From: Micropterix aruncella
Taxonomy: Eukaryota; Arthropoda; Insecta; Lepidoptera; Micropterigidae
Direction of reading: 5' to 3'
Assembly: GCA_944548615.1 (NCBI GenBank)
Contig: OX155951.1
Location: 41,583,964 to 41,647,963, forward strand
Length of the DNA stretch: 64,000 nucleotides
Shown here: positions 1 to 30,500 of the stretch, one piece after another
Layout of the letters: the number at the start of each line of letters is the position of its first letter
Position numbering within the stretch: position 1 is the first letter of the stretch
The notes under the pieces: generated by a model
The model's database searches: none
Seen by the model: only the letters and a program-made list of their open reading frames with translations
Told to the model about the DNA's origin: nothing
Made by a program: the position numbers and the translations under genes

Positions 1-1665
1 CCCTTCAGGCCTCGGCCCCTCAGCCGATTGACAAGTTGATGTCCCAAAAAAATTTAGTAAAAATTAGTAAAAAAAATTGAATTATGACACTGTCTCACCA
101 AAACATTAATTACTGCCAAACCACTTTACCCATAATTAACCCCTCCTGTCGCGAAGTAAAAACTCACCTATCACTTTTGCGCGCGACATATTCGGGCATA
201 AAATCGACGCGAGTCAACGGCCTTGAGAAAAACGATCATAACTTATAAACCACTAAACGGATTTAAAAAAGATAAAGAGAAAAATGATCGCATTGAAATT
301 TGACATATAAAACATTATAACCTTATCTCGTAAAACAATTAAGATAATAATGAATAAATATTACAAAATTGGCAAACTGAAAAAACTCGCCTATAAAATA
401 ATTTCGATTTTTTTGTCCCAAAATACGTAAAATATGCAAAAATTGTAAATACAGTTATATTCTTTATTAAATGCTTTACCAAAACGATATATTTTTTTTA
501 CTTATTTGCATACAAAAATATTTATTTATTCAGCCAAGAAAAATTTTATGTATTCTCGAAAAAAAAAAATTTTGTAATTTTTAATTTGTGACTACTTATG
601 GTATTTTTTTATATGAAATTCTTTCAAAATAACTTTATTACTACATCACACTTCTTAGAAATCACACCAGAACTTTGAGCTTTGTCTGATATTATAGAAA
701 AATCTAAAGTTTTGAGAGTTTCCGCGTCCGAACTTAATAATAAACTTTGAATGCTCATAATATAAAATTCGTTAGATTTTTTCAATTATATTGTCTTATC
801 ATAGACTTATTATATGTCTAATAACTAATTACTATACTCCAAAGAGTCACATTTCATCGAAAAACTATGGAAAATCGCACTTTATTCTCTCATAGTAATT
901 ATCAAAACAAGTTTCTTTGCGCGATTCATTTTACAAAACAAGATATAATTTTCAAAATACGCCTAATTATGTGATAACTTAGGATGTAAATGAAGCAATA
1001 CTTATTTTGTTAGTAAATTAAAGCGACATTACGTCATATTTCGCAATATATCGGGATATTTCATAAACATTACAAAATAATAACAACCATTTTTTCGCGA
1101 GCCGTTTGTTGTCGCCGAAGTGTTTTCTTTAAAAATTCGTGAAAAACAGCAAATGGACTATCTGAAATGACTAATCCTCATTCCGAAACTACTTAAAATG
1201 CAAATTACTCACTGTTCTCCGGTAAATAACACTCAAAAACTGCACACACACACTTTTTATCACCAATTCCGCAGAGCCGTACGCGGCCGTGCGAATGCCG
1301 ACGGGAGACTAGGCGTTTGACGTCTATGCTCACTTTTTAATCGCCGTTCGATATTGCCACACAGAAATCTTGAATTAAAGATATTTTGGCCATATCGTTG
1401 CGCCGTCAGAAAACATATAGTACGACGTTTCGAATCGTAAATTGCATTTTTCGCAGCGGCGAGCGCTTGGTCCGGTAGCGGATGTTACGGAGTTTAGGCG
1501 GCCGACATAAATGTCCCGAATCGGATGTTACGGATAGAGCGGGTTAAAATAAAATACATTAACATAATAAAATAAAACAAATTAAATTAAAATAAAATAA
1601 AAACGGGGCCATCAAGCTTAATCGTGTTGTGGCCGATATCGGCCGATTGGGGCTCTAGGGGTTAA
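1..1665 (-). mobile_element. TTAA element (GGCCGATATCGGCC family) split by a nested TTAA element
   Basis: The right end, read on the minus strand from 1665, is TTAACCCCTAGAGCCCCAAT followed by the palindrome GGCCGATATCGGCC. The left end (1 onward, cccttcaggcctcgg) matches the far end of the copies at 3435-3703 and 16191-16440, but its outer TTAA would lie just before the window. The outer element is about 260 bp. The extra length is the 136-1547 insertion described separately. It encodes no protein. Confidence 0.85.
136..1547. mobile_element. Nested 1.4 kb TTAA-flanked element
   Basis: TTAA at 136-139 and at 1544-1547 flank 1404 bp that are absent from the related copy at 16191-16440. That copy reads cccataattaaaataaa across the same point (TTAA at 16299-16302), so this is a clean insertion with TTAA target duplication. 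Ends are TTAACCCCTCCTGTCGCG on the left and, on the complement, TTAACCCGCTCTATCCG on the right. The right end carries two direct copies of TCCGTAACATCCG, each followed by a CGG-containing inverted repeat. The interior is AT-rich with no convincing ORF, so it is non-autonomous. Confidence 0.85.
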
Positions 1666-1904
1666 AAGCCTTCCATAACAGTACAGACTTTATGCTAATG
1701 CTGTTTAAGTTTGTTTTGTTTGAAAAACTTTATTGCACACTCAATAGAGTACAACACGGTGGGGCCTATTGCCAAGTGGCAATATCTTTCGACCATACCG
1801 CCAGGATTATTGTGACTAAGGTGTGGACCAATTGATTTGTAAAAGAAGTCATTATATAATTTTGGTGGAAGTCATAAATGAATACACTTACAAAATAATC
1901 ATCA
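1666..1904. other. Unassigned spacer, possible LINE 3' scrap
   Basis: No gene. The stretch aaaaactttattgcacactc near 1721-1745 resembles 3' ends of degraded LINE copies, but this is weak. Confidence 0.3.
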
Positions 1905-2217
1905 TTAACCCCTTGAGTATGATACGACCAAATCTGGTTCTGAAACAATTATCCGTTGAGTATGATACGACCAGATCTGGTTCCGCGTTTTTTTCACTTA
2001 TTTGACGTTCTCATATTTATTCATAATTATCTAATTGTTTTACAAAATGATATTTCAATATTCTATATTCGAAATTTTCAATGCAATCATTGTGCAGTTG
2101 TTCTTTTTATGATTGGTGTAGTAGTTTCGTAGTTATAGTACTTTAAGGTCGATGTCGCTGAAAATCCTGCAAGAGACAGATGCATCCATGAAAATACCCA
2201 TTTACTCCAAGGGTTAA
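1905..2217 (+). mobile_element. TTAA element, CCAGATCTGG family
   Basis: TTAA occurs at 1905-1908 and at 2214-2217. Ends are TTAACCCCTTGAGTATGATA and, on the complement, TTAACCCTTGGAGTA. A unit of about 28 bp (TTGAGTATGATACGACCA, then A or G and ATCTGGTTC) is present twice at the left end. The first copy places a CCARATCTGG palindrome centred 28 bp from the outer TTAA. No coding capacity. Confidence 0.8.
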
Positions 2218-2399
2218 GAAAATAACACGTATCAACTCGATATCAAAGGGAGGAATGGAATATAAGGACAAGCAAAGGAGACGGGAGGGGGGGTATTCAT
2301 GAGTCCTATGTCCGGCCGCCACTGGCTATCACGTTTGGAGTCCCTATTTGGTGAAGGGCATCAACTTGCTTGATAGTGCAGTAACGCTTCACAAAGTTA

Positions 2400-2985
2400 C
2401 CGCAGACACTAAGACAGTCGAGTTACGAGAAGAGGCTACGGAGCTTAGACTCACAACCGGCATACGGACCCGAACCTATCGTGCCCCTACCATACTCGCA
2501 CATAAACAACCAACTTGACAACCACTACAAACAACTACATCAAACACACTGGAAAGAGATAGACACCTGCAGACAAACCAAAGAAATAGTAATGGAATAC
2601 AACCACAAACATACCAAAACACTTCTAAGGACAAAAAGCCCCCAACTACGCAAACTAGTGGGACTGATAACAGGACACAACACACTAAACAAACACCTCT
2701 TCAAAATGGGCGGAACGAATAGCCCTATGTGTAGAGCATGCATGGAGGCGGAAGAAACCACAAAACACATTCTGCTAGATTGTGAACAGGTAGAAGTATA
2801 CAGGACAAAACACCTTGGGACCCCAGGCACCCTGCGCGAGGCGGCAGGAAACCTGAAAGCCCTGTTGGCTTTCGTCGAGGAACTGGGGTGGGTGGAATAG
2901 CGCTACCCCCGTTACACGCAAAATAGGCACACTGGATGTCGACTTGCGGAGGAACGCCCAGTATAACTAACTAACTAAGACTCAC
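2400..2985 (+). mobile_element. LOA/R1-like non-LTR retrotransposon, 3' fragment
   Basis: The frame 2481-2900 has the C-terminal zinc-knuckle region of such LINEs: RKLVGLITGHNTLNKHLFKM, then CRACMEAEETTKHILLDC. It ends in GWVE and a stop. A short ACTA repeat at about 2967-2980 is a typical 3' tail. The reverse transcriptase is missing, so this is a 5'-truncated dead copy. Confidence 0.8.
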
Positions 2986-3039
2986 AACATCGGTGTTAAC
3001 GGCACACCGAGAGTAGGTTCATGAAAATAAATTTCTAAC

Positions 3040-6000
3040 CTTGTGTCATGCCATCAGAGTCATCGAGATCTTGTCCGTGATCATAGCGCGCTCTTTTCTT
3101 TGGATCGCTGAGTACAGTATACGCCTCTCCCACTTCTTTAAAGCGTTTTTCCTGCTCTCTCTTTTCGGAGTCCGGTGCGCCTGCGTGTCGATCGGGATGG
3201 TGGACCATTGCTCGTTTTCTAAAATAAAAATGAATTTTTTTATTTCCTCGCGCCTTTAACTTTTCACCGCACCTGGCCCAATATGCGACCACGCTAAACA
3301 TATGTAAGGAGTAAAAAAAGTATGCACCAATTCATGTTTCTCGCCTATTATTATAAAAAAATGATCAATCCACGATTAAATATTACGATCAATCTACGAT
3401 TATTAAATGACAAAAAATTGGTTACAGAATACATTTAACCCCTCAAGCCCCGATTGGCCGATATCGGCCAAATCACGATGCAGCGTGACGACCCGTTTTA
3501 GTTTTATTTTAATTTAAATTATTTTATTTTATTATGTCTTATTATGTTAATATGTTTTATTTTATTTATGGATACAGTGGTTTGGCATTAATTAATGTTT
3601 TGGTGAGACAGTGTCATAATTCAATTTTTTTACTAATTTTTACTAAATTTTTTTGGGAAATCAACTTGTCAATCGGCTGAGGGGCCGAGGCCTGAAGGGT
3701 TAAAAAGGTCAAACATGAGGACAATGAATAGTCGCCATATGCAATATCATCATCAAAATTGTTTAAAGTAAACATATCGTAATGTCTCAACTAGGGAATC
3801 CAATCCTGCAAATGCGGGATCCCGCAAATGCGGGAATCCGTAACGTTTTTGCAGGATCAGAAATGCGGGATTACTCATGCGGGATCCAGCAAGTTTGGGG
3901 GATTGAATAAAATATATTTTAAAATTAAGGGCTCAGACGACGTTCTGATTATTTATAAGACCCCTATAGCCTCATTAATAATAATAGTGATTTAACAACT
4001 TTCCTATAGAACTGAACTCGTGAGTTTTCTATAGAATTTGTATGGAAAATTATTTTTCTTCAGTTTTTAACTTACAGCGAAATAAATTTTGAATTTCAAT
4101 TTTGTATTGTGTGAATCCTGTATCGGAACGGAACAAAATCAATGTCACCAAGTACTCTATGACTAGGGATTCCCACACGGCTCGCGGCACGGTGATTTAC
4201 CTTCGCGCGCAGTCAACTCAACCTCAATCGGTCGGGTTATTGCGCCGTTTGTGTCTACTTGTGTAGTTGTGTGTGTGATGTGAAAAGATACGTTACGTAC
4301 GATACAAATATTTCTTGTTATAAAAGTTTTTATAGCTAATTAAACGAGTTACTAATAAAAAAATTACAAGTTATGATTAAAAATGAGTGTCAATTTCGTT
4401 TATAAAGAGTTTAAAAGCTTGAGTGAAGTGTGGAAACATTTTTTAAGAGCAGAAAATGGGTCAACCGCTAAATGTAAATTATGTCCGCTCGAGTACAAAG
4501 GATTAATAATATGCAACACTTAAAATTAAGTTAATGTCTTTTATAAGATTATAATGATTATCTTTTTAAGGTTAAATGTATTGATTTTTGGAACCACTTT
4601 ATGTCCGTGTAGAGAATAAATGTAGCTAACTTTTGTACATTCAGTTTTTGTAAATATTATACGATAGTGTTTTAGTGATGTAAAGATACATCTTTTATTT
4701 GCATCCATTAAACAGGGCATGCTGGTTGGTTTCCGGCATACTGGACGCTTGTGGTAAAAGGTTAAAAATTACATAGATTCAGCATAAGTGGTAACAAAAT
4801 TAAAATTGGTATACCTGTACGCTTTTTTGATGTCATCAACTGATGCATTTTTTTCAATTCCGAGTATTTTATAATAGTCTTTACGCTTGGATCGCTTGAG
4901 CGCCGCCTTTGCCTCGTGCAACAAGTGCTTGTTCTCCTTGCTTTTGTCCATTTTGACAGCTCGCTCGTAGTCTTTGACCGCCTCCTCATGCTCGCCGAGG
5001 TCCGAGTAGCATTTGGCCCGCCGCAACAAAGCTTTGAGGTAAGTGTCATCTAAAGCTAGAGCCGACGTACACGCTTCTACGGCTTCCTTCAGACGGCCCA
5101 GCTTTGTGCATACCGTTGCTTTGTTTTGGTACAATTTGGCGTTGACAGTCTTGTTGTTGGGATCGATTTTTAGTGCATCTCCGTATAGCCGGTAGGCATC
5201 TTGCCATTTGCACATTTTGAAGGCTTCGTTACCTGTAATGTTGAGAATATGAAAGAATAAACGAAAACTAAAAATGTCTGGCATTCTGTAAAGCTGCTGA
5301 TGTTGAAACCATATTTGGACTGCAAAAAGAAACTATTTGTTCGATGTATGATCTAGTTTCTAGGGAGACACTGTTGGGAACTTTTCAAGGAAATTATATC
5401 CTCGCCGTTGCTTATCAGTTTATTTTTGCAAATATAATGTATGTCTGAAGCTGTTCAATAAAGTCAGTGACTGCCATAACATAAATATGTTATATATGCT
5501 TTCAGTTCCTAATTTCCAATTTAAAAAGGTCAGATGTCCTTTCATGGGGCAATGTATACATTTCTAAGACAGAATTGTCCACGAGTTTCTAATTAATCAA
5601 TTTAAGCATCGTATTAAAGACCTACTTTGTAAAAAACACACTAAAAGATCAACGACTACTTGATGATAAGGATGACTGGTGTTGGTTGATACAGCTTAAA
5701 TTTCACTGGTCAACACATTTTTTGTCCCTTTAACAAAAGTAATTAAATCTTATAGGAAATTTAACGCTGATTTCAGATATGTAATTAGTTTTTTTCTATT
5801 ACGTCAGGTTTTTATGGAATTTATGGAGTTTTACTAAAATATGTATAAATTCATATTTTTTCGTGTGTTATCATTGATACTGAAAAGTCGGATTCTGAGT
5901 TCTCTGTGGAGGTGTCTACTTCTGCGAAGCCTCACTTGTTGAACCAAAATGACCTAAATGATCTGGTACGTGACCTGAATTTATCAAAACTGCAATCAGA

Positions 6001-9000
6001 AATGTTGGGTTCGCGCTTGCAGCAGTGGAAACTTCTCGAAAAAGGTACAAAAATCACACACTTTAGAAACCGGCATCGTCTCTTGGTTTTCCATATTATG
6101 TCATGGAAGACACTTTATGTTACTGTCAAGACATTGAAGGTCTGTTCCAGCTCTTGGCTTGCAACATAACGCAGCAGATTGGCGACTTTTCATAGACTCA
6201 TCAAAAGTAAGTTTGAAAGCTGTTTTAATTCACAATGGAAATACTCAACCGTCCATTCCCCTTGGTCATGCTGCAAACATGAAAGAGAACTATGACAACA
6301 TGAAGCTGCTGTTTACAAAAATAAAATATGTAAAATACGAATGGAAAATATGTGGTGATCTAATAAAAGTAATAGGGCTCCTACTAGGAATGCTAACGGG
6401 ATACACAAAGTATTGTTGTTTTCTGTGCGAGTGGGACAGCAGAGAGAGGAAAAACCATTATACCAAGAAGGACTGGTCTACTAGAGAGCACCTTATACCT
6501 GGCACAAAGAATGTTCACCATGTTCCCTTAGTAAAATCTGAAGATATCTTACTTCCACCCTTACACATTAAATTGGGTTTGATGAAAAATGTTGTAAAAG
6601 GCTTGTCTAAGGATGGAAATGGCATGACTTACTTAAAGCAAAAGTTTCCTAAGATCAGCGACGCTAAAATTAAAGAAGAAATATTCGTGGGACCACAAAT
6701 AAGGGAGATCTTGACTGATCTGAATTTTAAAACAGTGTTGAGACCAGATGAGCTAGCCGCTTAGTCGGCCTTCAAGAATGTTGTCGAGAACTTTCTTGGA
6801 AATCATAAAAGTGAAGACTATATCAGCATTGTATCTGAAATGCTCATGGCCTATAAAAATATGGGATGTAACATGTCACTAAAAATACACTTTCTTCACA
6901 CTCACTTAATTTTTTTTCCCGAAAATATGGGAGATGTCAGTGACTAGCACGGCGAACGATTTCACCAGGACATTGCGGCTATAGAGAAGCGATACCGAGG
7001 AAAGTGGAGCCCATCTATGCTGGCTGACTATTGCTGGACCCTGCAGAGAGACTCTCAAGATACTCACAAGCGCAAATCAGGAGCAAAACAAATTAAATTG
7101 AATTAAATTTGAAATTTTGTTAAGTAAGTACCCGTCATATTATGACAGAATTATGTAAAAACACTTTGTTCATTTAACAAAATGAACCTGACCTATAAAA
7201 TTTTTTTTGTTTCATTTTGTGTTTAAGGATAGTAAATACATATAAAAAAATTAGCTATGCTTTAGGGACTGCACTTAAAAAAAATATGTCGACCAGTGTT
7301 TTCAGACTCGCTTTGCTTTATATACTGGGTGACTGGGTAAACGGGTTTCTGTACTTTATACTAAGAAAGATTTTTTATTTTATTTTATTTGACTATTCCT
7401 GAAAAAAAAAAAACACATTTTTGGATATTAGTTTTTTTATACAGAAGGTACATGAAAACATGAAAAACGGAGTTGAAACTCTTCCTCATATTTTTTTTTC
7501 TGATTATAGGTAGTTTTTGTTTATATAACATTATTCTACATAAAACAGAGTCAAAAATCATCTACAAGTTTTTTAGGCCTTTGGTGTTGAAACAAATTGA
7601 AAATTATCCAAAAGTTGAAAATAAAATATGCTTTTTCTCAGTAGTTTGATAAATTTCTCGGTAGTTTGATAATTTCTCGGTAGTTTGATAATTTCTCGGT
7701 AGTTTGATAATTTCTCGGTAGGTGCTGAAATGGACAGATTACACATAACTGGTGAAAATGGCCAAAATTCATGAAGTTAAAAAATGCTGCCAGTGAACGA
7801 AAAGACAGTCGGAGTCCCAAAGAATCACCGGAACCACTCGGACAGAAATGGAAGATGTTATAGGCTTAATAAACTTACCTTCCTCCTTCTTTTGCTTCAA
7901 TAATTTGGCTTTTTTATAGATTGCAACTGCTTTGTGGTGATCGGGCGCCAGCCGCAGCACCTGCTGAAAGTGTTTGAAGGCCTGCTCCACATTGTCCTGG
8001 TAGTAGAGGCAGACGCCTCGCACGTAAATGGCGTCCGGGTTGACTTTGTCGAAACGCAGGCTGTCGCTGGCTATCTCCTGCGCTTCTTGGTAGCGGCCGA
8101 GAAGGGCCAGACACTCCGCTTTTCTCAGCTTTGCCCTAGGAACATAATCGGATGTCAAAATCGTAACCGACTCGGCGGAACGGAATAAAGTTTGGCAATG
8201 CGAGTATTCAACTTGACAGTATCAGATTGTGCATTTAAAAAAAATTAAAAAATACGTGTGGCACTCGGGGACTGCCGCGGTAAAGCTATTGCATAGCATT
8301 TTTAAAAACTTATGCAATTAAAATTATAAATTAATTTAATTTTTTCTGATATCAGATAACTGCGCTCTATCGGAAAACGTTGAAATTATTCCGAATCATT
8401 TGCGGCTGCGTGCAGTAGCAAATGATTCGGAATAATTTAAACGTCTTCCGATAGAGCGCCGCGCACGAATTTTTTATTCGATAAAGCGTAAAAAACGGAT
8501 TTTTCGAAAAAAATCGTAGATAAAGATAGATAATTAAATTATCTTTAAAATGGTGCAGGTTTTATAATAATACGCCAGATAGTATTTGCGTAGTAGTCGT
8601 TTTTGTGTTCGGTTAGACCTAATTTCACAAATTAATTACACTATGTAATATAAACAAAATCTAAAATATTCAAAGCTAAGAATATTAGGAAAATGTTCTT
8701 GTTTAACATATATTTTTTTCGAATCGTAAGCAGTACTCGTTTAGACGTAATTATCAGTTTAAAATAGTTAATTTTCGTTAAGAAATTTCTTCATTCGGTC
8801 GCCGCGCTGGCCTAGGCCCGCGATAAAAGCTATGCAATAGCTTAAAAAGAGATGTAATATACCCACTTGTTGCTGGCAGGACAGAAATCCAATATTCGGT
8901 CCATGCAGTAAACAATGCGTCTATTGTCGGCGGTTGATGCTGCTTTTTCAACCTCATCTTCGAGGCGCTTCAAGGATTCCATGATAGACAATTCAGTAGA

Positions 9001-12000: not shown

Positions 12001-14341
12001 AGGAAGGAAGGAAGGAAGGAACCCCAACGACTACAAGGACCGCACCATGGAACCGCTCCGCTGCCCTTGCAGTCTGGAAGCCAGTCGCGAGCGGCTCTAC
12101 TGCACCGTGCAGTATTGAGCGCGGTCCAAGTAAAGGACACTACGGTCGACGAGACGCTCACTCCTATTCGGGGAGTTGAGTGTCGGTCCGAGTCGGGATT
12201 TACAGTCCGACTCGCGATTTACGGTCGACGGGGACGCTCTCTCCAGTCGTGGAGTTCGAGCACCGGTCCAAGTTGGGACCTTCGGAGAGTCGGGTCCACG
12301 CGGCGCACACGCGGTCAGACGGGCGCACATAGGCGCAGTCAGACACACGCGGGCGCAGACGGGCGCACATAGGCGCAATCTGGTGCGCATCGGCGCACAC
12401 GCGGCACCCACGCGGCGCACACGCGGTTAGACGGCGCAGTCAGACACAGGCGCAGTCAGACACACGCGGGCGCAGACGGGCGCACAAAGGCGCAGTCTGG
12501 TGCGCATCGGCGCACACGCGGCACCCACGCGGTGCACACGCGGTCAGACGGGCGCACATAGGCGCAGTCAGACACACGCGGTCAGACGCACGCGATCAGA
12601 CGGGCGCACATAGGCGCAGTCGGACGCACGCGGTCGCAGACGGGCGCACATAGGCGCAGTCAGGCGAACGCGGCACAGGCGGACGCAGCACAGGCGGACG
12701 CAGCACAGGCGGACGCAGCACAGGCGGACGCAGCACAGGCGCCGACAGGCGGACGCAGCACAGACGGGCGCACTCAGGCGCAGTCAGGCGGACGCAGCCC
12801 AGACGAGCGCAGCCAGGCGCAGTCAGGCACACGCAGACGCACACTGGCACACTCAGGCGCACTCAGGAGCACGCAGGCGCACGCACAGAGACGCCGCTCG
12901 ACAACAGAGAGATCTTGTTCGACCCGCTGCCCGGCAAGAACAGGATAGAAACATCCAGAAATAAGATTTATTGTATTTTATGTACGTAGGTTACATTTTA
13001 CTGTACAATAAAGAATTTTATAATATTGTGTATGTACCTAGGTTAATTGCGGTACCTAGGCTATGTCCTATTGTAAAATTGTATTTGTTATACACCTTAT
13101 GCACTTTGTTATGCATCCTAGACTAAGATCTCATGTTTGTAAATTTATGGTGTGTCATTGAAGTTCATCGAAAAATAATATGCCGTGTTGGCACTTGTGA
13201 GTGGAAGGCGTGTTTTATTGGTGCAGGGGACGGGGAGTAAAACGGTGGTAATAGACAGACTGAGGCGTATCGAGGCTTGCAGCAGGTGTCGTGGCCGCCC
13301 GTTACGGGGCAAGCGGCGACCAAGCGGTGGACCTCTTTTTACAGTCCTGGGTCCACACAGCGCTGGGTCGGTCCGCGCCACAGGGCACCGCATATGTTGT
13401 GCAACGGGCGCAACAGGCCAAATTAGTGATTTTGAAGTTTTCTAATTTCACAACATTACTGTCAATGACCTTAATCAGATGGCAATGATTTGTAACTTTT
13501 TGCTGGATGAATAAAAAACAATTAGTCATCAGGGCAAATGGCTGCCATATTCTCATCGAATTTAAAATGCGATTACCCAGTGACTATCGCTGAAATATCG
13601 AAGTATCGGCTGAATGCAGTAATTGAAACTATCCGCAATGAAATCGACTTACTATCACTGAAATGTTGAAAATACAAACATACCCAAGGCAATACAACAC
13701 TTTGCAATGCGGACATATCCTTTGGTGAATGTGTTGTCTAGCTGAACTGCTCTTTGGGCATCATCGTATGCTTTGTTGTAATTTCCGAGCATCATGTAGC
13801 ATGCAGATCGATTCCCATAATAAGCCGCATTTCCTGGACAAAACTCAATGGCCTTTTCGTACAGCTCCAATGCCCCTTTGTAGTCCTTTCGTTTGTAGAA
13901 GTGATTACCGAGTTCTTTCTTTTCTTCGGCCTGTCTATAAAAAAAATAAGCGAGGCTCAATTTTATGTTACATTTTCGTTTGTTGTTTCGCTACCCTATC
14001 TAACTTCAAATTCATGGGTGAAAGATCACTTGAAACGTCATTACCTGAAACATCAATTTTTGGACGTTGCTCAGAATAATGCAACTAGAGATTCAATAAA
14101 TATCAGTTTTGTCCCTAATTACGACTCGCAAATGAAAAAGCGTAGAAAGAAAGTCACAACAATAGCAAAAAACACATTGGCATTTTCAGCGCTCTCGTAA
14201 TGCGACACGAACACAAAATATATTAAACACGGCTACATTTTATAATACATATATCAGTTACCTTTCGGTACTCTTCGGGATTAAATCATCGATAGTTACT
14301 GTTAGATCTTCCTCCCAGGGATTGGACTCTGCCTCCGCCAT
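3040..14341 (-). CDS. DNAJC7: DnaJ homolog subfamily C member 7 (TPR2 co-chaperone), 3' end missing
   Basis: Co-chaperone that bridges Hsp90 and Hsp70 through TPR repeats and stimulates Hsp70 ATPase through a C-terminal J domain (family knowledge). Six coding exons on the minus strand: 14262-14341 (ATG at 14341), 13684-13934, 8867-9065, 7879-8135, 4815-5232 and 3040-3218. All junctions are GT-AG, and the phases join into 461 codons without a stop. Seen: TPR repeats through exons 2-5 (for example [20 protein letters not shown] and [20 protein letters not shown]), then the J domain from [14 protein letters not shown]. Its HPD triplet (HHPDRH, about residues 409-411) lies on the last visible exon. 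The reading stops at a donor at 3039, so the Gly/Phe-rich tail expected in this family must lie left of position 1. I searched 1-3039 and found only repeats. Introns hold a TE pseudogene, a Tc1 copy, two inverted-repeat elements and a minisatellite. Identification is secure. Confidence 0.95.
3435..3703 (+). mobile_element. TTAA element, GGCCGATATCGGCC family
   Basis: TTAA lies at 3435-3438 and 3700-3703. The left end is TTAACCCCTCAAGCCCCGAT, then the 14 bp palindrome; the right end is ggcctgaagggttaa. The AT-rich middle matches 16191-16440 and the outer element at position 1. It lies in the last visible intron of DNAJC7. Confidence 0.88.
3785..4740 (+). mobile_element. hAT-like remnant with a BED zinc finger reading frame
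   Basis: A 46-codon frame starts at 4383 and contains [15 protein letters not shown] followed by [12 protein letters not shown], the start of a BED zinc finger (C-x2-C) as found at the N-terminus of hAT transposases. The frame stops at 4521 before the second His/Cys pair, and no DDE catalytic domain follows. Upstream are hAT-like ends (ctagggaatccaatcctgc near 3790, tagggattccca near 4166) and several copies of aatgcggga. The right end is not visible and the borders are approximate. Confidence 0.55.
5880..7110 (+). pseudogene. Decayed copy of a multicopy transposon-associated protein of unknown class
   Basis: Two frames (5906-6169 and 6159-6764) and their continuation past a TAG at 6762 read as one broken protein. 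Recognisable blocks are [86 protein letters not shown] and [20 protein letters not shown] recall this family as a very abundant uncharacterised protein in arthropod genomes with transposon-like distribution. A frameshift near 6160 and stops at about 6762 and 6945 make it non-functional. It lies in a DNAJC7 intron. Confidence 0.7.
7637..7720 (+). repeat. 19 bp tandem repeat, about 4.5 units
   Basis: The unit ctcggtagtttgataattt is repeated with little change in the DNAJC7 intron. No gene lies in 7111-7878. Confidence 0.85.
8240..8848 (+). mobile_element. Inverted-repeat element with a long central hairpin, copy 1
   Basis: Shares nearly its full length with 15196-15749. Ends carry aaagctattgcatagc (left) and its complement-related gctatgcaatagctt (right). 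The centre folds into a stem of about 42 bp (gcgctctatcgga ... tccgatagagcgc, 8363-8461) around a short loop. No ORF. Its right end is 18 bp from the splice donor of DNAJC7 exon 3 (exon border 8867). Confidence 0.8.
9200..9430 (-). mobile_element. Foldback element with GACGTTTCGG-type core, copy 1
   Basis: Contains tttgtagcacccgatgtttc and an inverted arm ending in gggctaggtacaaacttc, plus the conserved loop tctaccctggacaac. The 5' flank tcgaagactatcgcgg is the complement of the 3' flank of the 41213-41406 copy, so the two copies are in opposite orientation. Part of a third copy lies at 22633-22760. Confidence 0.7.
9790..10460 (+). pseudogene. Tc1/mariner transposase pseudogene
   Basis: Translated blocks are [20 protein letters not shown] and EVYKKIW, then, after an AT-rich interruption of about 170 bp, [17 protein letters not shown] stop follows at the [14 protein letters not shown] position, and the C-terminal [19 protein letters not shown] comes last. 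These are the Tc1 DDE-domain blocks. It is interrupted and not functional. It lies in a DNAJC7 intron. Confidence 0.8.
10470..11080. other. Intronic DNA, nothing recognised
   Basis: AT-rich DNA in a DNAJC7 intron with no gene or repeat I can name. Confidence 0.5.
11085..12290 (+). repeat. GC-rich repeat block, possible retroelement regulatory end
   Basis: Holds a direct duplication around gagcgagcgaga with cgaccgcccgctc (11098-11190) and a GGAA microsatellite at 11998-12019. It also has a promoter-like stretch with an AT-rich box near 11930 and the arthropod initiator-like tctctcagttcc near 11970. None of the frames looks protein-coding. It may be a long terminal repeat or LINE 5' region; unproven. 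Confidence 0.4.
12290..12900 (+). repeat. GC-rich minisatellite in DNAJC7 intron
   Basis: Irregular tandem array built from ggcgcagtcagacacacgcg, gacgggcgcacatag and, at 12670-12745, a clean run of caggcggacgcag units. Long frames here on both strands are repeat artefacts. A polyadenylation-like aataaagaatttt follows at about 13008. Confidence 0.85.
13020..13680. other. Intronic DNA, nothing recognised
   Basis: No gene or named repeat between the minisatellite tail and DNAJC7 exon 2. Confidence 0.5.
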
Positions 14342-14518
14342 TTTTATTCGTCCAAAAAATAGGACGTTCGCCGTTCGTCTGACAGCGGCGGAAACAGCAA
14401 TGTCGCCAGTTACGGAAAGTGTCCGTGGGAAAAATATTTTCCCAAATTTTTTTTTTCGTGGCAATGGTACGAATCATTTTTGGCCAAAATGAAGTTAAAA
14501 ATAAGAACATATTTTCTT

Positions 14519-14919: not shown

Positions 14920-15195
14920 ACGAACATAGTTCGGTGCTTAAGGCAAAAAATAGTATGTCCTTGATTACAATAGATCTTTGTTCATATACAGACCAAAAAC
15001 ACCACTAAACTACGGCAGAACAAAACCCTAAACAATGTCACTGAAGTCTGTCACATGTCCAGTCCACATTTATTAATCTGGGCAGCGCGCTTGAGCATCT
15101 CGCGACGATCGCTAAAAAAGCCCTGGCAGATGGGTCTACCATGGCATTAAATACTATCCTCTTTCTCTGCATACTCTGGGTTGTCACTGACAAAA
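14920..15195. other. Intergenic DNA between DNAJC7 and RpS18
   Basis: I see no gene or recognisable repeat. Confidence 0.5.
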
Positions 15196-15749
15196 ATAAA
15201 AAAAATACGTGTGGCACTCGGGGACTGCCGCGGTAAAGCTATTGCATAGCATTTTTAACAACTTATGCAATTACAATTATTTATTTATTTTATTTTGTCT
15301 GATTTCAGATAACTGCGCTCTATCGGAAAACGTTGAAATTATTCCGAATCATCTGCGGAAGCAAATGATTCGGAATAATTTAAACGTCTTCCGATAGAGC
15401 GCCGCGCACGAATTTTTTATTCGATAAAGCAAAAAAACGGTTTATTAAGAAAAAATCGTAGATAAAAAGATAGATAATTAAATTATCTTTAAAATGGTGC
15501 AGGTTTCATAATAATACGCCAGGTAGTATTTGCGTAGTAGTCGTTTTTGTGTTCGGTTAGACCTAATTTCACAAATTAATTACACTATGTAATATAAACA
15601 AAATCTAAAATATTCAAATCTAAGAATATTAGGAAAATGTTCTTGTTTAACATATATGTTCTTGTTTAATATATATTTTCGTTAAGAAATTTCTTCATTC
15701 GGTCGCCGCGCTGGCCTAGGCCCGCGATAAAAGCTATGCAATAGCTTAA
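15196..15749 (+). mobile_element. Inverted-repeat element with a long central hairpin, copy 2
   Basis: Same family and orientation as 8240-8848, with small indels (shorter loop, an internal atatgttcttgtttaa duplication near 15654). It ends 49 bp from the RpS18 stop codon, just past that gene's polyadenylation signal. Confidence 0.82.
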
Positions 15750-15797
15750 AAATAAGACATTTTCCAAAATTTTTAATGTTTATTTTAGTCATACATT

Positions 15798-17701
15798 TTA
15801 CTTCTTCTTGGACACACCAACGGTTCTGCCACGACGACCGGTGGTTTTGGTATGTTGACCGCGAACCCTCAGGCCCCAGTAGTGACGCATACCTCTGTGA
15901 GCGCGAATCTTTTTCATCCTCTCCAGATCTTCACGAAGCTTCGAGTCAAGTGACGAGGAAGTCAACTGAAAAGCGAAAAAACGCATTAAAAATTATTGTT
16001 CACAACAGTGCTCAGTTTCACGAGGCGTAAAAATAGTCACCATTTTGAGCAGTTAGATAACTGCTTCTCTATCAAAGGAGGCAATGAAGCCCTTTGGTGC
16101 ACTTCGGCGGAGGATTTCATACCGTTAGAAACCCTCGTGTTGTGCAGGTTAACCAGACTGGGGCACAAGTTTAAAATGACGCAGATCGCTTAACCCCTAG
16201 AGCCCCAATTGGCCGATATCGGCCACAACACGATTCAGCGTGACGGCCCCGTTTTAATTTTATTTTAATTTATTTTATTATGTTTAATATGTTTTATTTT
16301 AATTATGGGTACAGTGGTTTGGCAGTAATTAATGTTTTGGTGAGACAGTGTCATAATTCAATTTTTTTACTAATTTTTACTAAGATTTTTTGGGACATCA
16401 ACTTATCAATCGGCTGAGGGGCCGAGGCCTGAAGGGTTAAGGTTCGTATCCATTTGACAATGCTCAGGCAAGCGTGCTCAGAGGAACAAAATGAAAGTTT
16501 CGAACGACGTCGAACAAGCATCAACATTGAAATAGCTGTGCTCATTACACGCTCAGCTACGTCATGTCTTCATGTACCACAAAAAAACTGTCCACACTGA
16601 GCATTGAGCAAATACTGAGCGCCTTTTGAGCACGGAAAAAAACCAACAAGGCGCGGGCTCGCCCTGAGTGAGCAAGCGTGCTCAGGCGTCTGCGCTTGAG
16701 CGGCTCGGCCAAATGAGACGCTCATTCGCCTGAGCATGCTTAACCCTTCGAACCTCAGAGGGACCGATCGGACTCAAACGTAAAAGCACAGTTGCGCGTC
16801 ATTGGGACCGATCGGACTCAAGACTATCGGTGTAAAATTTGATTGTGAATAAAAATATATACATATTTAGTGTTTTCAAAAAATTAATTCTAATATCAAA
16901 TTTCATCGGGAACAAAACAACGTTTTTATTTTAATTATCGCAACGGTTTGGGAGAAATTAATATTTTGGTCGGCCACCATAATAAATCTAAAATTTCCAT
17001 AATTATACATAGTCTTTCAAAGACATGCGCTCGCGAAATCTCGCAGCTCGGGGGGTTTAAGTGGATATGCGGCTTTACTGCACATTAAATACAATAACTA
17101 CAAACCTGGGTGTATTTACCGTCGACGATATCTTTCTGCCTGTTGAGGAACCAGTCCGGAATTTTGTATTGACGAGGATTGCTCATGATTGTCACGATTT
17201 TTTCAACCTGCAAAATGTCAAAACCGTTAGTGCCGTTGCCTTGCTTCAGTTGTACTAATTATTATATTTTGTATTTATTACGTACCTCCTCCTCAGTGCA
17301 TTCTCCGGCACGTTTATCCAAATCAATATCGGCCTTTTTCAACACAATGTTGGAATACCGCCGTCCGATACCCTTGATGGAAGTCATCGCAAACATTACT
17401 TTGCATTTCCCATCAATATTCGTATTCATAATACGAAGAATGTGCTGGAACTTCTCCGGAATGACGAGCGCCTAAAATAAAACGGTTCCATTGATAAATG
17501 CAACTAACCACAACAATACATACGTTTTATGACAGTCGCCGACGAGGTTATTTCGTCAAATCCACGATTAATCACAAAATACACCAATTTGATTCAAAAG
17601 ATCACTTAATTAATGATTTGAGAACATATGTCATCGATTTAAATATAACGATTGTTGGAATATTCGCGGATTTATAGAAATTACAGCGCAAACCTCACCA
17701 T
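15798..17701 (-). CDS. RpS18: 40S ribosomal protein S18 (uS13)
   Basis: Small-subunit ribosomal protein at the head of the 40S particle. Four coding pieces: 17699-17701, 17286-17471, 17106-17207 and 15798-15965. They sum to 459 nt, giving 152 residues, the usual insect length. Exon 1 contributes only the ATG: the donor GTGAGG follows it directly and exon 2 opens with [13 protein letters not shown]. Family landmarks seen are [27 protein letters not shown]-type [20 protein letters not shown] and the basic C-terminus [14 protein letters not shown] polyadenylation signal lies just past the stop (complement of 15779-15784). Upstream of the ATG is a pyrimidine run (complement of 17722-17729) that could be a 5'-TOP start, as expected for ribosomal protein genes; this is inference. 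Intron 3 is filled by three mobile elements placed end to end. Confidence 0.98.
16191..16440 (+). mobile_element. TTAA element, GGCCGATATCGGCC family (empty-site copy)
   Basis: TTAA lies at 16191-16194 and 16437-16440. The left end TTAACCCCTAGAGCCCCAAT is followed by the palindrome centred at base 28/29. It keeps an uninterrupted TTAA at 16299-16302, where the copy at the window start carries its 1.4 kb insertion. Located in RpS18 intron 3. Confidence 0.88.
16459..16739. mobile_element. Inverted-repeat element TGCTCAGGC
   Basis: Left aatgctcaggcaagcgtgc, right gcctgagcatgc. The motif tgctcag recurs many times inside. No ORF. It fits exactly between the two TTAA elements. Confidence 0.7.
16740..17060 (+). 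mobile_element. TTAA element, CCGATCGG family
   Basis: TTAA lies at 16740-16743 and 17057-17060. The left end TTAACCCTTCGAACCTCAGA leads into ggaccgatcggactc, centred at base 28/29. A second direct copy of gggaccgatcggactcaa follows about 40 bp on. The right end on the complement is TTAAACCCCCCGAGC. In RpS18 intron 3. Confidence 0.8.
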
Positions 17702-17912
17702 TTTGTCGAAAGAATACCACCAAAAAGAACGGAACGAAACGTCAAAATTTGCCACATAGATTATTTCTTGACCCAATATTTTTTTTCTATTATGCCGTAT
17801 GATATAAAATATTGCCATATGATATAAATAGCCTTAAAATAAATACACTTTGCATGATTACATTTTTAATCTTTATTTTAAAATATTGATAAAAATGTAG
17901 GTAGAAGCGTCA

Positions 17913-18348
17913 TTATGAACCTCGGTAGGTAGAAAATCCATACGGACTTATCAACAGCGGAATATGGTAATGCTCGAGATCTCCACTTTGAAAAACAATC
18001 TGCAAAATGTAATCAAAAATAATTATTTACTATATCTACTAAATGTACCTACGTAACTATAAAAAGATCTAATATTGATAAACAAACCTCAATGAAGGGA
18101 TAAAACGCTTCCAACCCCTTCTCCTTATAATAGTCATCGGTTTCAAACTTCATTTTATACGTCTCTTTTTCGAGTACTTTTCCTTGCATTAACGTGGCGC
18201 ATCTACCATTATCATTCGTCGTGCCTTCGTTTACTTTCAGCCATTCTTTCCCGTCCATCTTATAAAGCGCAACTTTCATATTTTGTACCGGCCGCCCTTT
18301 TGCCAAATCCAATATGTGTGTTGTTATAGGCGAATTTGAGGATGCCAT
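17913..18348 (-). CDS. 5-hydroxyisourate hydrolase (transthyretin-like)
   Basis: Hydrolyses 5-hydroxyisourate, the product of urate oxidase, in the uric acid degradation pathway. Two exons: 18088-18348 and 17999 down to 17913, in phase, 115 residues, which is normal for the family. Signature residues are all present: His11 in the N-terminal SPITTHILD, Arg49 in TNDNGRC, His99 in [10 protein letters not shown], and the C-terminal STYRGS ending, the YRGS tetrapeptide that separates the enzyme from transthyretin. An in-frame ATG at 18399 would add 17 residues (start MAFAPVLKSSS). I prefer 18348 because the family begins close to the SPITTHILD motif, but the longer form is possible. A polyadenylation signal is seen on the complement at 17872-17877. 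The gene is divergent from VPS52. Confidence 0.95.
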
Positions 18349-18589
18349 TTTTCTATTACGAAAAAAACTTGACGATTTTAAAACTGGAGCGAACGCCACG
18401 AAAAATAAAACTGAGGAGGGTAAAAGGTTATCAATCAGGTGACTGTGGTTATGAAAACCAAACTACTGGTAGATTTTTTTTAAACTGGCGGTCATAAAAC
18501 TTGATCACATAATTAAAAACATAACTGTCAACACGAATGACGTTTGTTTCCCGAAGTTTGCGAATTCTGTTTTCTTTTTAGTTTTAAAA
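18349..18589. promoter_or_regulatory. Shared head-to-head promoter interval, hydrolase gene and VPS52
   Basis: 241 bp separate the preferred hydrolase ATG from the VPS52 ATG on the other strand (190 bp if the upstream ATG at 18399 is used). This spacing is typical of a bidirectional promoter. I see no clear TATA box on either side. Inference from spacing only. Confidence 0.55.
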
Positions 18590-24500: not shown

Positions 24501-27500
24501 GTCGTCAAGCCATGTTTCTTCAGTCGATGTTCATGTGCTTTGTTTTTTAGCGCTGCAACCATCTTTGTTGTTTTTCTCTGCGCTCTTTCTAGTGACAATC
24601 TATGTCTTTTCCAAAATAGGAATTCCATGTCTGATATGATTGTTTATTTGTTTGTTTATACTCTTTATTGTGAAAATGTCACAATGGGCGGGTTTATTGT
24701 CATATGACAATCTCTTACAACCAACCCTACTATGACTTGTTATATGTAAGTGTGCGTGTAACATGTCTGTAAGTGTGTGTCTTGTTATTGCATTTGATCG
24801 ATAGAATTGAAAATGTAATTCCGTTAATTAGATGCCAACGGAAAATGGTGACCCAGCCAATACATATGAGTATTTGACGAGTGGGCAAAAGTAGATTGTA
24901 TAATTGAGGACCGTTTTCTCAAAGTGATACATCAGGTTTATTTTTAAAAACGAGTTTCTAGTGGTTTTATGTACCTTTCTTGGAGCCGGAGACTAAGTGA
25001 AAAGAAATTTCTAGAAAACGATATAAAAACCATCTTTTAGCAGGCGCAAAATGTGAGTTTTTGCAACGTCATATATCATCCATAGATAATTTTTAATTCT
25101 TTGTCTTGTCTTTGTTAATATACAGACATCATATGATGTCCCTACTAAGATACTAGTCATTTGTCTTCTATAAGTCGAGGAACCAATTATAACAAAATAA
25201 TTTTAATGTTGAAATTGTCAATGTTGAAATCGCAATTGGAAAATAATTAATTGAAAAGTAATAATTAAATAATATAATAACATAATAATTAATTAATTGG
25301 AAAACAATTAAAATTGAAATAATAATTGTCAATGTTGAAATCGCCATGAAAGATTTTTTCAAAGCGATACTGCAAAAGTATCATTTTGATAAAAACTCAC
25401 ACTTTATAACCAAGATAATAAAGAAGATTTGTATTTATAATTATCAATATGCGTTTAATTTTATTGATATCTGACTTAAGAACTTACAAATATTTGTTTA
25501 ATTTAAATGTATCTTAGGAAACGTTTTATGAATCATCTTGTAAAGAAAGATTTTTGCTGATGTATCATTTAGAGAAAACTGTCCTCAATTTGAGAATGAG
25601 ATCGCTGTTGATGAAAGAAAAAGCCATTCTTACCAAATATAAGAGCAAATTAGCTCTCTACTCATTTATCTAAATTATATGTGCCTCCCACTTGAGATCC
25701 CATGATCCTTTTGGGTCATGGAATATTGCAGCAATTTTCCTTCAACATTGTAGCGTTTTTGTTAACATTAATTTAATTTAAATTTCAGAAAAACCTAGAG
25801 ACATATGTCATTGAATGCTATGACAGTATCGCTTTATTCTTGTGCATTCAGCTTATATACCGTTATCAATTGATGAGCCACAAGAGAGCAGTACCAGCAT
25901 TAGACGAGTATGTAGTTTTATTCATTACTAGCTGAATGTCATTCAGTGTTTCTAGGGTTCCTTCTGTGGCATTCTGGAATATTGTGGAACATTCTAATGC
26001 ATTCAGTCTTATCATAAGAAAATAAGAGTTCTACTTATGGAGCACAACTCTGAAGTCGATGCAGTTTAAAATATTGCTATTTTACCTCACCTGATTCAGA
26101 TCAAGAGATATTGTGAATAATAGAATTTGCAACCACGATTATAGATCTTTAGGTTTGTCCACACTTGTGGGCTTTCGACTTCATCTTGCATCGTCACTTT
26201 CAATTTCATCTTGCGTCTAGTGCAGTGGTTTCCAATTAGTTTTTCTACGTACCACTTCACGAAAGACGCCAAACTCGCATACCCCTTATTGCAGGAATGA
26301 TAAATAAAAAATGAAATCCGATTTTTAAAATTATTTAGTACCATCAAAATACAGTTGATGACGGTGAAAATCAGTTTAATGTGACAAATGTGCGCGTTTT
26401 TCTTTGCACAACTTAGTCAAGAGATTGCCACGCGTACCCCTTGATGCAACTTCGCACACCCCTGGGGGTTATACAAATACCAGATAACGTCACATACCAA
26501 CACCTAGCCATAGAGGCTCAAACGCCACCACATATGGAACCTTACTAAATAAAGGGTAAAACAATTTTGAGAGGCAGATTCTTCGCTGGAAGAATGGACC
26601 TCAGAACTCAATATCCGCACAAAAATTCTGCTAAAGGTTTAAAACCAATTGCAAGATCTACAAGGAAAAAAACTAATTAGGAAGCACTGGTCTAGTGTAT
26701 GCATTATTAAATGCCTTAACCCTTCAAGCCCCGCGACTTCTATATCGAAGTCAACTTCCAGGAAAAGTGATTTGATTGGGTTTTTTGTCATTCCATATTA
26801 AGTTGTATTTTATTTAAATGCACAATGATATTTGTATGATCGTGCATTTAAATAAAATACAACTGCATACGGAATGACACGAAAAACCCAATCAAATCAC
26901 TTTTCCTGGACGCGTTCAGTTGACTTCGATATCGAAGCCGCGGGGCTTGAAGGGTTAAGACGCATGCAGCTATATCGTCTAAACTTATGCGCTTACGTCT
27001 ATTCAATTGCGATCACTCAGTTTCCTGGTGGAGATTATGATGGACGAGTGTGAACTTGTAGCAATCATTGATGTACCTTGGAGAAGTATAACCGCAGGCT
27101 TTTTATCTTGTTTTTGACCAATTTCACATTTAAATTGTATTGTTGGCCCAGAGCAGTCGAAAGCGTCATTCCTTTTTGTTTTATTATTGAAAACTATATG
27201 ATTCGGGTCCTATGATACATGACAATTTCGATTATCTTCTATAAATTGCAATGAGTGACGCATGTGGATCCCCTAGCTCTGGATCCGAGTCCGCTGGAGG
27301 CACATGTTGTTCAACTAGTTTTGACGCATAGTATTACACGCATGTGTCAAAGGAAAATGCAATATAAATTGAAACGTGCACGAGTGTGGACATACCTATC
27401 GTACTCCAAATTTCTAGTGTTTGCGCAATTCCAGTATTTTGGAAAAAGTAATCAAATTACCTCTATGAATTCCTATGTCTTGAATGGAATAAAATATAAA

Positions 27501-30500
27501 AAAAATGCATTCTCTCAGTCTGAGTTTGATAACAGTGGTTTGATCATTTGTAAAATTATTAACTTTCAGAGACTAATAACTTTTATATAAAAGCGAATTA
27601 AACAAAAGTATTTTAATGGAGACATAGTAGTAGAAACGATGAATTGTATTATTTTATTCTGGAATAATAAATTTCCATGAGTCGAGATAGACATGGGTTG
27701 CATTAATATAAATATTTTTTTATGACATTTTAGATACTGGGATTCTTTGCAGTCAGTTCTGTGGCCTCGCCTGGAATACATATTCCGATTGAATATACAG
27801 AGTGTTAAAGATTGCGATCCAACAAAATTCTCCAGCAAAGAGATGGGACCGCATTATGTAAGTAGTCGTTTCAGAATTCTGAAAAATATTGTTATACCAC
27901 TCTGTGTTGCTGAGTGCACTAGTCTCTCGGTATTATTTCTGTGATTTAATCAGCCTATATAAAAATGCAATAGATAGCACTAATGCAATAATTTAATGTA
28001 ATTATTGGTTAAATAATGGGTTTTTATAATCAATCAGTCCATTATAAAAAAAAACATTAATTATTGGTTGTATTATATAGTGGGTTTTTATTAGCTGTAT
28101 CCTTGAAAAGGGTGGATCAGTACCAGCAAATAAGCAACTTTTAATTTAAAAAAATGCAAATAAATTTATGGCATATGGGTGTGTGTAATGTCATTCCAGT
28201 TATGATTCCGATGAGGCGTGGATCTTTTCTCCAGTATAATAAGTGATAAAAGTGAGTTTTTTTAGTGGTTTCATGAGTATAGTGGTCTAAATTGACTAAG
28301 TGCAGCGAGACCCTGTCTTAATTCAACTGTTTATTTTGCAATAAACTGTAATGGAACAGGATCTCATGTTGTTATTGCAATCTGCCCCACTGTAATGCCT
28401 TTTGTAGTTAGAAATGCCCACTGCTATCCACCCATTGTCCTAGAGGCCTAGCAATACTTTGTTAGTTGGGAGGTTGGTCCTCTTAACCCCTTGAGCGGCA
28501 AACGGGACAATTGTCCCACAATTGAAATTACCGTAGAGCGGCAAAGGGGACATCTGTCCCAGCCGAGATCGGCGCCGATGTTTTCCAATTATTTACCCTT
28601 GATACCTCACATAAATCATACGGCCTGTGGTATGTGCGAAAAGAGGAGAAGATTCTCTGTCGTTAACTCGTTGGTTCATTATTTTTCATAGTTGCCATTT
28701 TTTAGTCTATGATTGAACCAAACCAATTGTCCCACAATTGAAATTACCGTAGAGCGGCAAAGGGGACATCTGTCCCAGCCGAGATCGGCGCCGATGTTTT
28801 CCAATTATTTACCCTTGATACCTCACATAAATCATACGGCCTGTGGTATGTGCGAAAAGAGGAGAAGATTCTCTGTCGTTAACTCGTTGGTTCATTATTT
28901 TTCATAGTTGCCATTTTTTAGTCTATGATTGAACCAAACCAAACCAAAAACTTCAATATTCATGTTGATTTTCAACACCGAATATTTTTTTATTTTTGTA
29001 TGGGTATAAGTAAAACGAAGTCATAGGTTGAATGAAGCATATTACAATTATTATAAAAGTATTCACAATTTCTTGTATAGGCTGATTTATTTCCAGAAAA
29101 GGCAGTTTTTTTTCTGTACCACAACTTTGACAGATAATTCTGAATAATGCTTATTGCTTTACAAAACGACGTTACATGTATCTAATAGCAAATTTCAACA
29201 GGAACATAAAACAGGTCTTCTTTATACAATCCGTGTAGTAGTTTCGGAGTAATCGTCGTTTTCCTGAAACGCTATATTTTTGTTGTGATGTAATCTTCTT
29301 CTTCGCGTTCTCTAAGAGAAACTACAATTCAAACGTCAGCGCTCGAGGTATTATTGGCTTTCTTTGCCTGCCTGGATTTTGCGTTCCGCATCCAGTTTTT
29401 ATTCAGCCTCTCGTTCTTTTGCGCAGAGCGGTTCTCTTGTACCTCTGCCAGTGGCAGTATAGGTTCAGGTCCGATTGACATTTCGTTGAAGCAGTGGCGG
29501 ATACAGGGGGGAAGGGCACGATGTCCCATCCTTAGAGCACGATGCGGACGAGCAACGCAATAATTTGAATAATAGATCGTCATGTGTTACATATTCCTTT
29601 CACCCGGTGAATTCAAAAACTGTAATTTTTTCACTGCGAGTATAAAATAAAATGTAAACTCCGGTTAATAAAGGAACAAAATCAGTATTCATTTGAATTC
29701 AGTAAAATCCTTTAACAAAACTGCAATAAAATAGATATGAAACAAAAAAATCAATTGTGGTGGTATTTTGGTGGGCTCTCACTGCCCCCCCTCCCTCTCC
29801 CGTCTAATGATTTAATTGGAAACAACAATAATTCCCTTGCTTGTCCTTTTCTCACTAAATAAATTTCTATATTTGCACTAATCTGCCATTGCCCACTGCC
29901 TCCGCCATTATTTATTCTGGACAGGCAGTTATGACAGGACAGGCTGATACGTGCAGATCGGATCTTGTCAAGCTAGTCATAAACAATATTAATAAGTGTT
30001 TAGGTACAAATCGAGTATGTTTTAAATTGATTGACATGCTTGCACTAATCACTTCAAATGGTAGTTTATTGCATACGTGCACCGCTCTATTTTGTAGAAC
30101 GATTTTAAGACGATTAGATTGAAATTTTTCACGGTTAGTTATTCGCTGGGATCTCAAAGGTTTGTGTCGATGTTGAATTTGTAAATATTCTTTAGTCCGG
30201 GTTTATCGTAATAATTTGTCAGAATTTTACGTCTCAATCGGGACCTCTCTTCGTCTTCTTCGTTTGAGAGTAGTCAGTGTAATTCCAAGCGATCTTCATA
30301 AGTCCTATCCTTCGGGTCTAGTGGAATTTCGGTCGCCGTTCGTTGCACCTCTTTCGGAGCGTCTAAGTCTTCGTATAAGTAGGGGTTCCGGAGTCGATTG
30401 TCATATTCGAGAATAGGTCTCGCGTACGCCTCGCAGATCCGTAGAAACGTTCGTATCGACGGACGTCGGATAGAGTAAAGTTGTCTTTTTTAGCGACTGC

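What the first reader, a model, noticed from the sequence alone, without database searches (positions are those of the whole stretch)
1..28939. Unrelated TTAA elements share a palindrome centred exactly 28 bp from the end
Counting from the first T of TTAA, the symmetry axis falls between bases 28 and 29 in every case I counted: GGCCGATATCGGCC (complement from 1665; 3435; 16191), CCARATCTGG (1905), TTCGATATCGAA (both ends of 26716-26958), GGGACAATTGTCCC (28483) and CCGATCGG (16740). Outside the TTAACCC start these families share no sequence, and each has its own palindrome. A sixth family (right end at 1547) has CCGATTCGG centred on base 28. Constant position with changing sequence suggests a docking site for a dimeric DNA-binding domain. 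In piggyBac transposases a C-terminal cysteine-rich domain is known to bind subterminal palindrome-like sites. My inference is that each family is mobilised by a transposase whose finger domain reads a different palindrome while the TTAA cleavage core is shared: a modular address code.
Basis: partly seen in the sequence, partly recalled or inferred. Interest (0 to 1): 0.88.

Follow-up and report, generated by a model that had tools for sequence, protein, structure and literature searches.

The report
Jumping-gene ends with fixed-position address sites
Six families of piggyBac-type jumping genes in this stretch carry differing mirror-symmetric DNA motifs at almost the same distance from one end, as expected if each family's enzyme docks there as a pair; the docking design is known from two studied transposons, and several families sharing it in one genome make it testable.

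Summary
In the window, 8 of 15 element ends (families A-E) have a palindrome with its axis exactly between bases 28 and 29; F is at 28.0; 6 of 15 ends lack it. Fetched genome copies keep it: A 28/29 (one being the window's own), B 20/20, E 8/8, C 4/6 unchanged. Four families carry a second unit 43-44 bp further in.

The families are not unrelated: four share a 13-bp tip (C nearly), and five share an internal block (C weakly).

The geometry matches two solved transpososomes: piggyBat (28.5, second unit +44) and piggyBac (29.0). The palindrome is most likely the binding site of the transposase's cysteine-rich-domain (CRD) dimer. A published domain-and-site swap already shows modularity.

The rule is not universal: one autonomous family lacks the palindrome, another has it at 29.5, and a scan with one other core peaked at 18.5 and 22.5.

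Verdict: known mechanism, new members. "One address per transposase" stays inferred; no A-F palindrome was seen in an element together with its own transposase.

The parts
1544..1665 (-). Family A copy A1, palindromic end (TTAACCCCTAGAGCCCCAATC GGCCGATATCGGCC), interrupted by element F; continues at 135-1
   Evidence: Axis 28.5, 6/6 steps; A1 flanks joined across F align with A2 and A3
1..135 (-). Right part of A1 beyond the F insertion; end lacks a palindrome at 28.5 (its TTAA lies outside the window)
136..1547 (-). Element F, 1412 bp, inserted in a TTAA of A1; palindromic end at 1547 (TCCGATTCGGGA, axis 28.0; half-sites TCC/GGA symmetric about 28.5), second unit +43, possibly a third near axis 114; other end at 136 without palindrome
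   Evidence: bases 1-775 match the right terminus of the 683-aa transposase element at 81%; tip pattern 672 times in the genome with up to 3 mismatches, reversed control 0
1905..2217 (+). Element B, 313 bp; palindrome ACCARATCTGGT axis 28.5 (first unit with one central mismatch), perfect second unit axis 71.5
   Evidence: 20 of 20 fetched genome copies identical over both palindromes
3435..3703 (+). Family A copy A2; palindrome TTGGCCGATATCGGCCAA axis 28.5 at left end only
16190..16440 (+). Family A copy A3; palindrome TGGCCGATATCGGCCA axis 28.5 at left end only
   Evidence: 28 of 29 distinct fetched copies (this one among them) keep at least 6/7 steps
16740..17060 (+). Element C; GGGACCGATCGGACTC axis 28.5, identical second copy +44; right end TTAAACCCCCC without palindrome at 28.5
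   Evidence: 40 places scored, the 39 others at 82-90% identity
26716..26958 (.). Element D, 243 bp, largely an inverted repeat; (CT)TCGATATCGA(AG) axis 28.5 at both ends (left copy has one mismatch)
28483..29262 (+). Element E; GGGACAATTGTCCC axis 28.5, second unit GGGACATCTGTCCC axis 71.5; homology to F and B runs past 28939 into the shared internal block; no right TTAA end found
   Evidence: 8 of 8 fetched genome copies keep the first palindrome
29236..29262 (+). Shared internal block TAGTRGTTTSGGAGTWATNNTNGTTTT; other window matches at 100-126 (-), 229-255 (-), 2119-2145 (+), 16312-16338 (+)
   Evidence: 5 matches with up to 3 mismatches, 0 expected

Best explanation
These are non-autonomous piggyBac-superfamily elements, mostly MITEs. 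Each palindromic end is a piggyBat-type 'left end': a TTAA + CCC tip for the catalytic core, then a palindrome centred 24-25 bp inside the tip on which the two CRDs of a transposase dimer sit, in B, C, E and F followed by a second dimer site 43-44 bp further in. The axis is nearly fixed because core and CRD are held at a set distance on the DNA; the sequence can change because another CRD reads it. Shown: position, symmetry, second unit, conservation among fetched copies of A, B and E, relatedness of the families, coincidence with the solved piggyBac and piggyBat sites, and piggyBat-type CRD motifs in transposase genes of this genome. Inferred: that a CRD dimer binds these palindromes, and that each family is served by its own CRD.
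For: The same code gives axis 29.0 for piggyBac LE35 (6/7) and 28.5 (5/7) plus 72.5 (5/7) for piggyBat LE85 (oligo sequences); published CRD sites agree. Second units at +43 (B, E, F) and +44 (C), piggyBat being 44. The ends opposite the palindrome lack it in A, B, C, F, as reported for the piggyBat RE. Differences between unit 1 and unit 2 fall in the centre (positions 26-31) in 6 of 7 cases, P 0.00095, zone chosen post hoc: arms kept, spacer free. A2 and D keep tip and centre while both arms change. Family A, 29 distinct copies: positions 21-36 conserved 0.98-0.99 versus 0.81 at 8-13 and 0.94 at 37-44. Autonomous elements in the same genome: Auto1 (595-aa ORF with a cysteine-rich C-terminus) has a 7/7 palindrome at 29.5 and a +43 unit at its 3' end; L146 has 6/7 at 28.5 and a piggyBat-type CRD motif in another frame. 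F's relative encodes a 683-aa transposase aligned to piggyBat (28%, E 4e-51) through the CRD.
Against: Auto2 (7 loci read) has at most 3/6 steps at 28-30 at either end, though its cysteine-rich C-terminus resembles Auto1's by eye. One end each of the 858-aa and 676-aa elements also lacks a palindrome there (other ends not seen). One other palindromic core showed no 28.5 peak. D has the palindrome at both ends, an arrangement (LE35/LE35) reported inactive in cells with wild-type piggyBac transposase. In C, 2 of 6 fetched copies have an altered palindrome centre. The palindromic end of the 683-aa element itself was not seen.
Confidence: 0.82

Rival explanations
1. One transposase lineage with a relaxed CRD mobilises all families; the palindromes drifted from a common ancestor and do not act as separate addresses.
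For: Shared tip, shared internal block and shared right-half sequence show common ancestry. Position 25 is C in A, B, C, D and F, so half-sites are partly alike.
Against: Drift should break symmetry, yet the families have symmetric arms, and A2 versus D changed both arms together. Between B, E and F positions 14-36 match only 7-11 of 23 while the internal segment is 68-74% identical; within family A positions 21-36 are the best conserved after the CCC.
Confidence: 0.3
2. The palindromes act as hairpins or cruciforms, or as sites for a host dimeric factor, not as CRD sites.
For: A preprint discusses subterminal inverted repeats of piggyBac-like elements as possible dyadic DNA structures and PGBD5 targets (passages).
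Against: Arms as short as 4 bp (C, F), a distance equal to the solved CRD sites, and duplication of the unit at about the piggyBat dimer spacing.
Confidence: 0.07
3. Selection effect: a reader picked palindromes that happened to fall at one distance.
For: Only 9 of 15 ends fit (8 exact, F at 28.0); another core shows other distances genome-wide.
Against: Sum 31/36 versus a shuffle maximum of 23 at any axis (ends were selected); kept in fetched copies of A, B and E; a separate piggyBac-like locus at 28.5.
Confidence: 0.02

Closest known systems
piggyBat (Myotis lucifugus) left end, PMC11707139 and PMC13405395
   Same: Palindrome axis 28.5 counted with TTAA; core motif then palindrome repeated every 44 bp; opposite end without a palindrome (as in A, B, C, F); relatives with the same CRD motif occur in insects
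   Different: piggyBat tip is CACTTGG; its palindrome is imperfect and of other sequence; three units described, against two in B, C, E (F possibly three) and one seen in A, D; spacing 43 in three families; D has the palindrome at both ends
piggyBac (Trichoplusia ni) LE35, PMC7351741
   Same: TTAA + CCC tip; palindrome centred ~bp 25 bound by a CRD dimer
   Different: Odd palindrome (axis 29.0); both ends carry it at different distances; another CRD fold
Human MER75, MER85, Looper elements (PMC12324416)
   Same: Subterminal inverted repeats in TTAA elements (passages and legend)
   Different: No axis distances in the passages read; sequences not seen
Coral CMITE families (PMC2872659)
   Same: TTAA MITE families with a shared interior and differing terminal repeats (passages)
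   Different: No subterminal palindrome position in the passages read

Membership tests
piggyBac superfamily | TTAA target site, duplicated on insertion | tested here: met
   F sits in A1 between two TTAA copies and the joined flanks align with A2 and A3; 20 of 20 fetched B left ends start with TTAA in different flanks. Seamless excision was not tested
piggyBac superfamily | CCY/CAC terminal motif and short TIR | tested here: met
   TTAACCC at 14 of 15 ends scored (for A1R the TTAA lies outside the window and was put in; C right end is TTAAACCC); left and right TIRs of A, B, C, F agree only near the tip
piggyBac superfamily | Mobilised by a PF13843 transposase | tested here: inconclusive
   None in the window (tblastn, 11 queries, E<0.1); 116 places scored in the genome, the listed rows over the cut-off; only F linked, by terminal homology
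piggyBat-type left end | Palindrome at bp 19-30 from the tip (axis 28.5 with TTAA) | tested here: met
   A-E at 28.5; F at 28.0 with half-sites symmetric about 28.5
piggyBat-type left end | Motif + palindrome unit repeated every 44 bp | tested here: inconclusive
   +43 in B, E, F and +44 (palindrome part) in C; no clear repeat in A and D
piggyBat-type left end | Opposite end without palindrome | tested here: inconclusive
   Met in A, B, C, F; not met in D; E right end not found
piggyBat-type left end | CRD dimer binds the palindrome | not testable with these tools
   needs protein-DNA work

The most novel reading that the evidence does not exclude
A single genome keeps several piggyBac families on one chassis (shared tip, 43-bp dimer spacing, shared internal block) that differ chiefly in a palindromic address at a fixed axis; new families arise by symmetric switching of the two palindrome arms together with the CRD, isolating each family from the others' transposases.
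Probability: 0.35. Interest if true: 0.72.

Novelty: new member of a known kind. Interest (0 to 1): 0.5.

Why it matters
It extends a geometry known from two solved transposons to seven families in one genome (A-F and L146; Auto1 one base off), some of them young (listed B and E copies at 98-99% identity). That makes the co-evolution of zinc-finger and DNA address testable by swapping ends and CRDs, could help assign orphan MITEs to their transposases from a 16-bp site, and gives candidate natural CRD-palindrome pairs for orthogonal piggyBac tools.

Tried and rejected
Other collections led nowhere: no transposase relative confirmed in viral contigs or genome contigs. The exact A core in viral contigs gave a capped list of loci that I did not use. 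A MITE-shaped pattern gave 0 hits in viral contigs and 1 in genome contigs (L121), without a palindrome at 28.5. A protein search with window:31643-34750 found nothing. A paper search for end sequences typed from recall found only a piggyBat paper, and one for the internal block nothing.

CRD recognition position as a dial: in 58 non-redundant CRDs (64 of 120 listed homologues matched my motif) position 545, a DNA contact in piggyBat, is variable (E 26, R 10, S 5, L 4, D 4), but positions not named as contacts in the passages read vary as much or more, and R543 is mostly kept, so this is weak. A first conservation table for family A mixed orientations and was discarded, then redone.

A universal 28.5 rule was rejected. 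The chance explanation was rejected. 'Unrelated families' was rejected.

Full report
Setting. The window is eukaryotic, probably animal, nuclear DNA (DnaJ/TPR, VPS52 and fasciclin matches, a LINE reverse transcriptase, a DDE_3 transposase fragment), at G000:C2:41583964-41647963 of a 1.079-Gb assembly. The species was not identified.

Observation. Reading every TTAACCC in the window and scoring palindromes confirms the sites. Family A (three copies), B, C, D (both ends) and E have axis 28.5 with 5 or 6 of 6 inner steps; F (end at 1547) has CCGATTCGG at 28.0, though its outer half-sites TCC and GGA are symmetric about 28.5. Six of 15 scored ends have at most 2 of 6 at 28.5. Against shuffles the six palindromic ends together score 31/36, shuffle maximum 23 over all axes; these ends were selected, so the full tally of 15 is the fair one.

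Second geometric feature. The unit containing the palindrome is repeated at +43 in B (28 bases, 1 difference), E (26, 3) and F (22, 3), and at +44 in C (18, 0). Single repeats of this strength occur in roughly 0.1-5% of random stretches, but here the offset agrees in four families. In the first blind axis scan (to 79.5) the second-best axis over the six ends was 71.5; scanning further, 91.5 ties with it. Six of the 7 differences between units lie in the palindrome centre. F may have a third site near axis 114.

Relatedness. The families are a clan. Window copies of A, B, D, E share the tip TTAACCCYTNRAG and C nearly so; A2 and D share 17 of the first 18 bases and all 8 central bases but differ at 19-24 and 33-37, that is, in both arms. 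Over their whole length A and D do not align above shuffles. B, E and F share an internal segment, alignment scores 80-124 against shuffle maxima of 44-48; A and C share one (69 against 33), and C and E align above shuffles (54 against 33). A 27-bp block occurs five times in the window, only in A, B, F and the continuation of E, at 72-102 bp from the right TTAA in A, B, F; C has a weaker match at 94. F is inserted in a TTAA of A1 and the joined flanks align with A2 and A3.

Genome copies. Family A: 41 matches listed (40 scored of 240 candidates), 30 loci fetched, 29 distinct including the window's own: 28 keep at least 6/7 steps, 23 all seven; positions 21-36 are the best conserved after the CCC. 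Family B: 40 scored of 301 candidates, 39 of them other copies at 98-99%; all 20 fetched carry both palindromes. Family E: 40 scored of 729, 39 of them other copies at 98-99%; all 8 fetched keep the first palindrome, one has a shifted second unit. Family C: 40 scored of 687, other copies at 82-90%; of 6 fetched, 4 keep the palindrome and 2 have changes at its centre. F tip: 672 matches with up to 3 mismatches, reversed control 0. D did not complete.

Autonomous relatives. The first look gave 116 scored transposase places of 2326 candidates. Of 20 regions fetched, paired element ends were determined in 12. Auto1 (595-aa ORF and relatives; 4 loci): tip TTAACACGTTAAACGCC, 3' end with a 7/7 palindrome at 29.5 and a second unit at +43; its 5' end has 5 of 6 steps at 30. 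Auto2 (593-600 aa and related loci; 7 loci): at most 3 of 6 steps at 28-30 at either end, with a repeat at +44 lying further in. L146 (509-aa ORF; one locus): TTAACCCATTTAGACC tip, 6/7 at 28.5, a piggyBat-type CRD motif in another frame. The 683-aa transposase lies in a repeat of more than 8.2 kb whose right end is 81% identical to the non-palindromic part of F; its C-terminus aligns with the piggyBat CRD. Its palindromic end was not seen; among the listed exact F tips I found, by eye and without a script, none beside the 683-aa places that I compared.

An independent scan. TTAACCC followed after 6-36 bases by SCATGS (two of its four forms are palindromes) gives 3168 places (control 1102); of the first 100 listed, all on one contig, 27 lie at axis 18.5, 26 at 22.5 and 1 at 28.5. 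These peaks seem to come from a few abundant families; whether the motif is their CRD site is unknown. The fixed axis is thus a property of this clan and of some others, not of all TTAACCC elements.

Literature. PMC11707139 (passages): piggyBat LE motif at bp 11-16, 55-60, 99-104, each followed by an imperfect palindrome; P1 at bp 19-30 is bound by the two CRDs; the piggyBat CRD is unrelated in fold to that of piggyBac and reads an unrelated palindrome; the RE lacks it. PMC7351741 (passages): the CRD dimer binds bp 17-33, axis ~25. PMC13405395 (passages): piggyBac CRDs on the piggyBat core with a matching RE, together with a partner transposase, restore transposition as a heterodimer. PMC8086355 (passages): CRD diversity. 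PMC12324416 and PMC2872659 (passages). In the searches I saw no title or abstract start stating a constant palindrome axis over many families; six papers were opened, by passages only, so absence from print is not established.

Mechanism. [quoted passage not shown] a second dimer can sit 43-44 bp further in, as in the piggyBat tetramer. Changing the CRD changes the arms but hardly the axis. Binding and one-to-one specificity are inferred, not shown.

Noticed in passing
28508-28942: Two identical tandem copies of 216 bp inside element E, beginning within the first palindrome.
   Followed up: partly
8362-8459 and 15315-15402: Two similar hairpin sequences (GCGCTCTATCGG...), a further foldback repeat.
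   Followed up: no
L147, L148 (G000:C43, C4): A 683-aa piggyBac-type transposase sits in a repeat longer than 8.2 kb; dozens of listed places have the same score, and the two fetched are 99.4% identical, with internal direct and inverted repeats: an unusually large, recently spread element.
   Followed up: partly
G000:C51:19.68-20.46 Mb: Ten family-A copies with equal score (348 bits, 91%), several spaced 21,839 bp apart: a large tandem array.
   Followed up: no
G000: Abundant TTAACCC families with CCATGG at axis 22.5 (TTAACCCTTAGAAAGCTAGCCATGG) or 18.5 (such as TTAACCCTTTGATGACCATGG), possibly another end geometry.
   Followed up: no
12305-12881: GC-rich tandem repeat array (units of 39-117 bp) open in several frames.
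   Followed up: no
window 29236-29262 and four other sites: Conserved block TAGTRGTTTSGGAGTWAT shared by A, B, F and the E continuation (weakly C), in the same orientation relative to the palindromic end; function unknown.
   Followed up: partly
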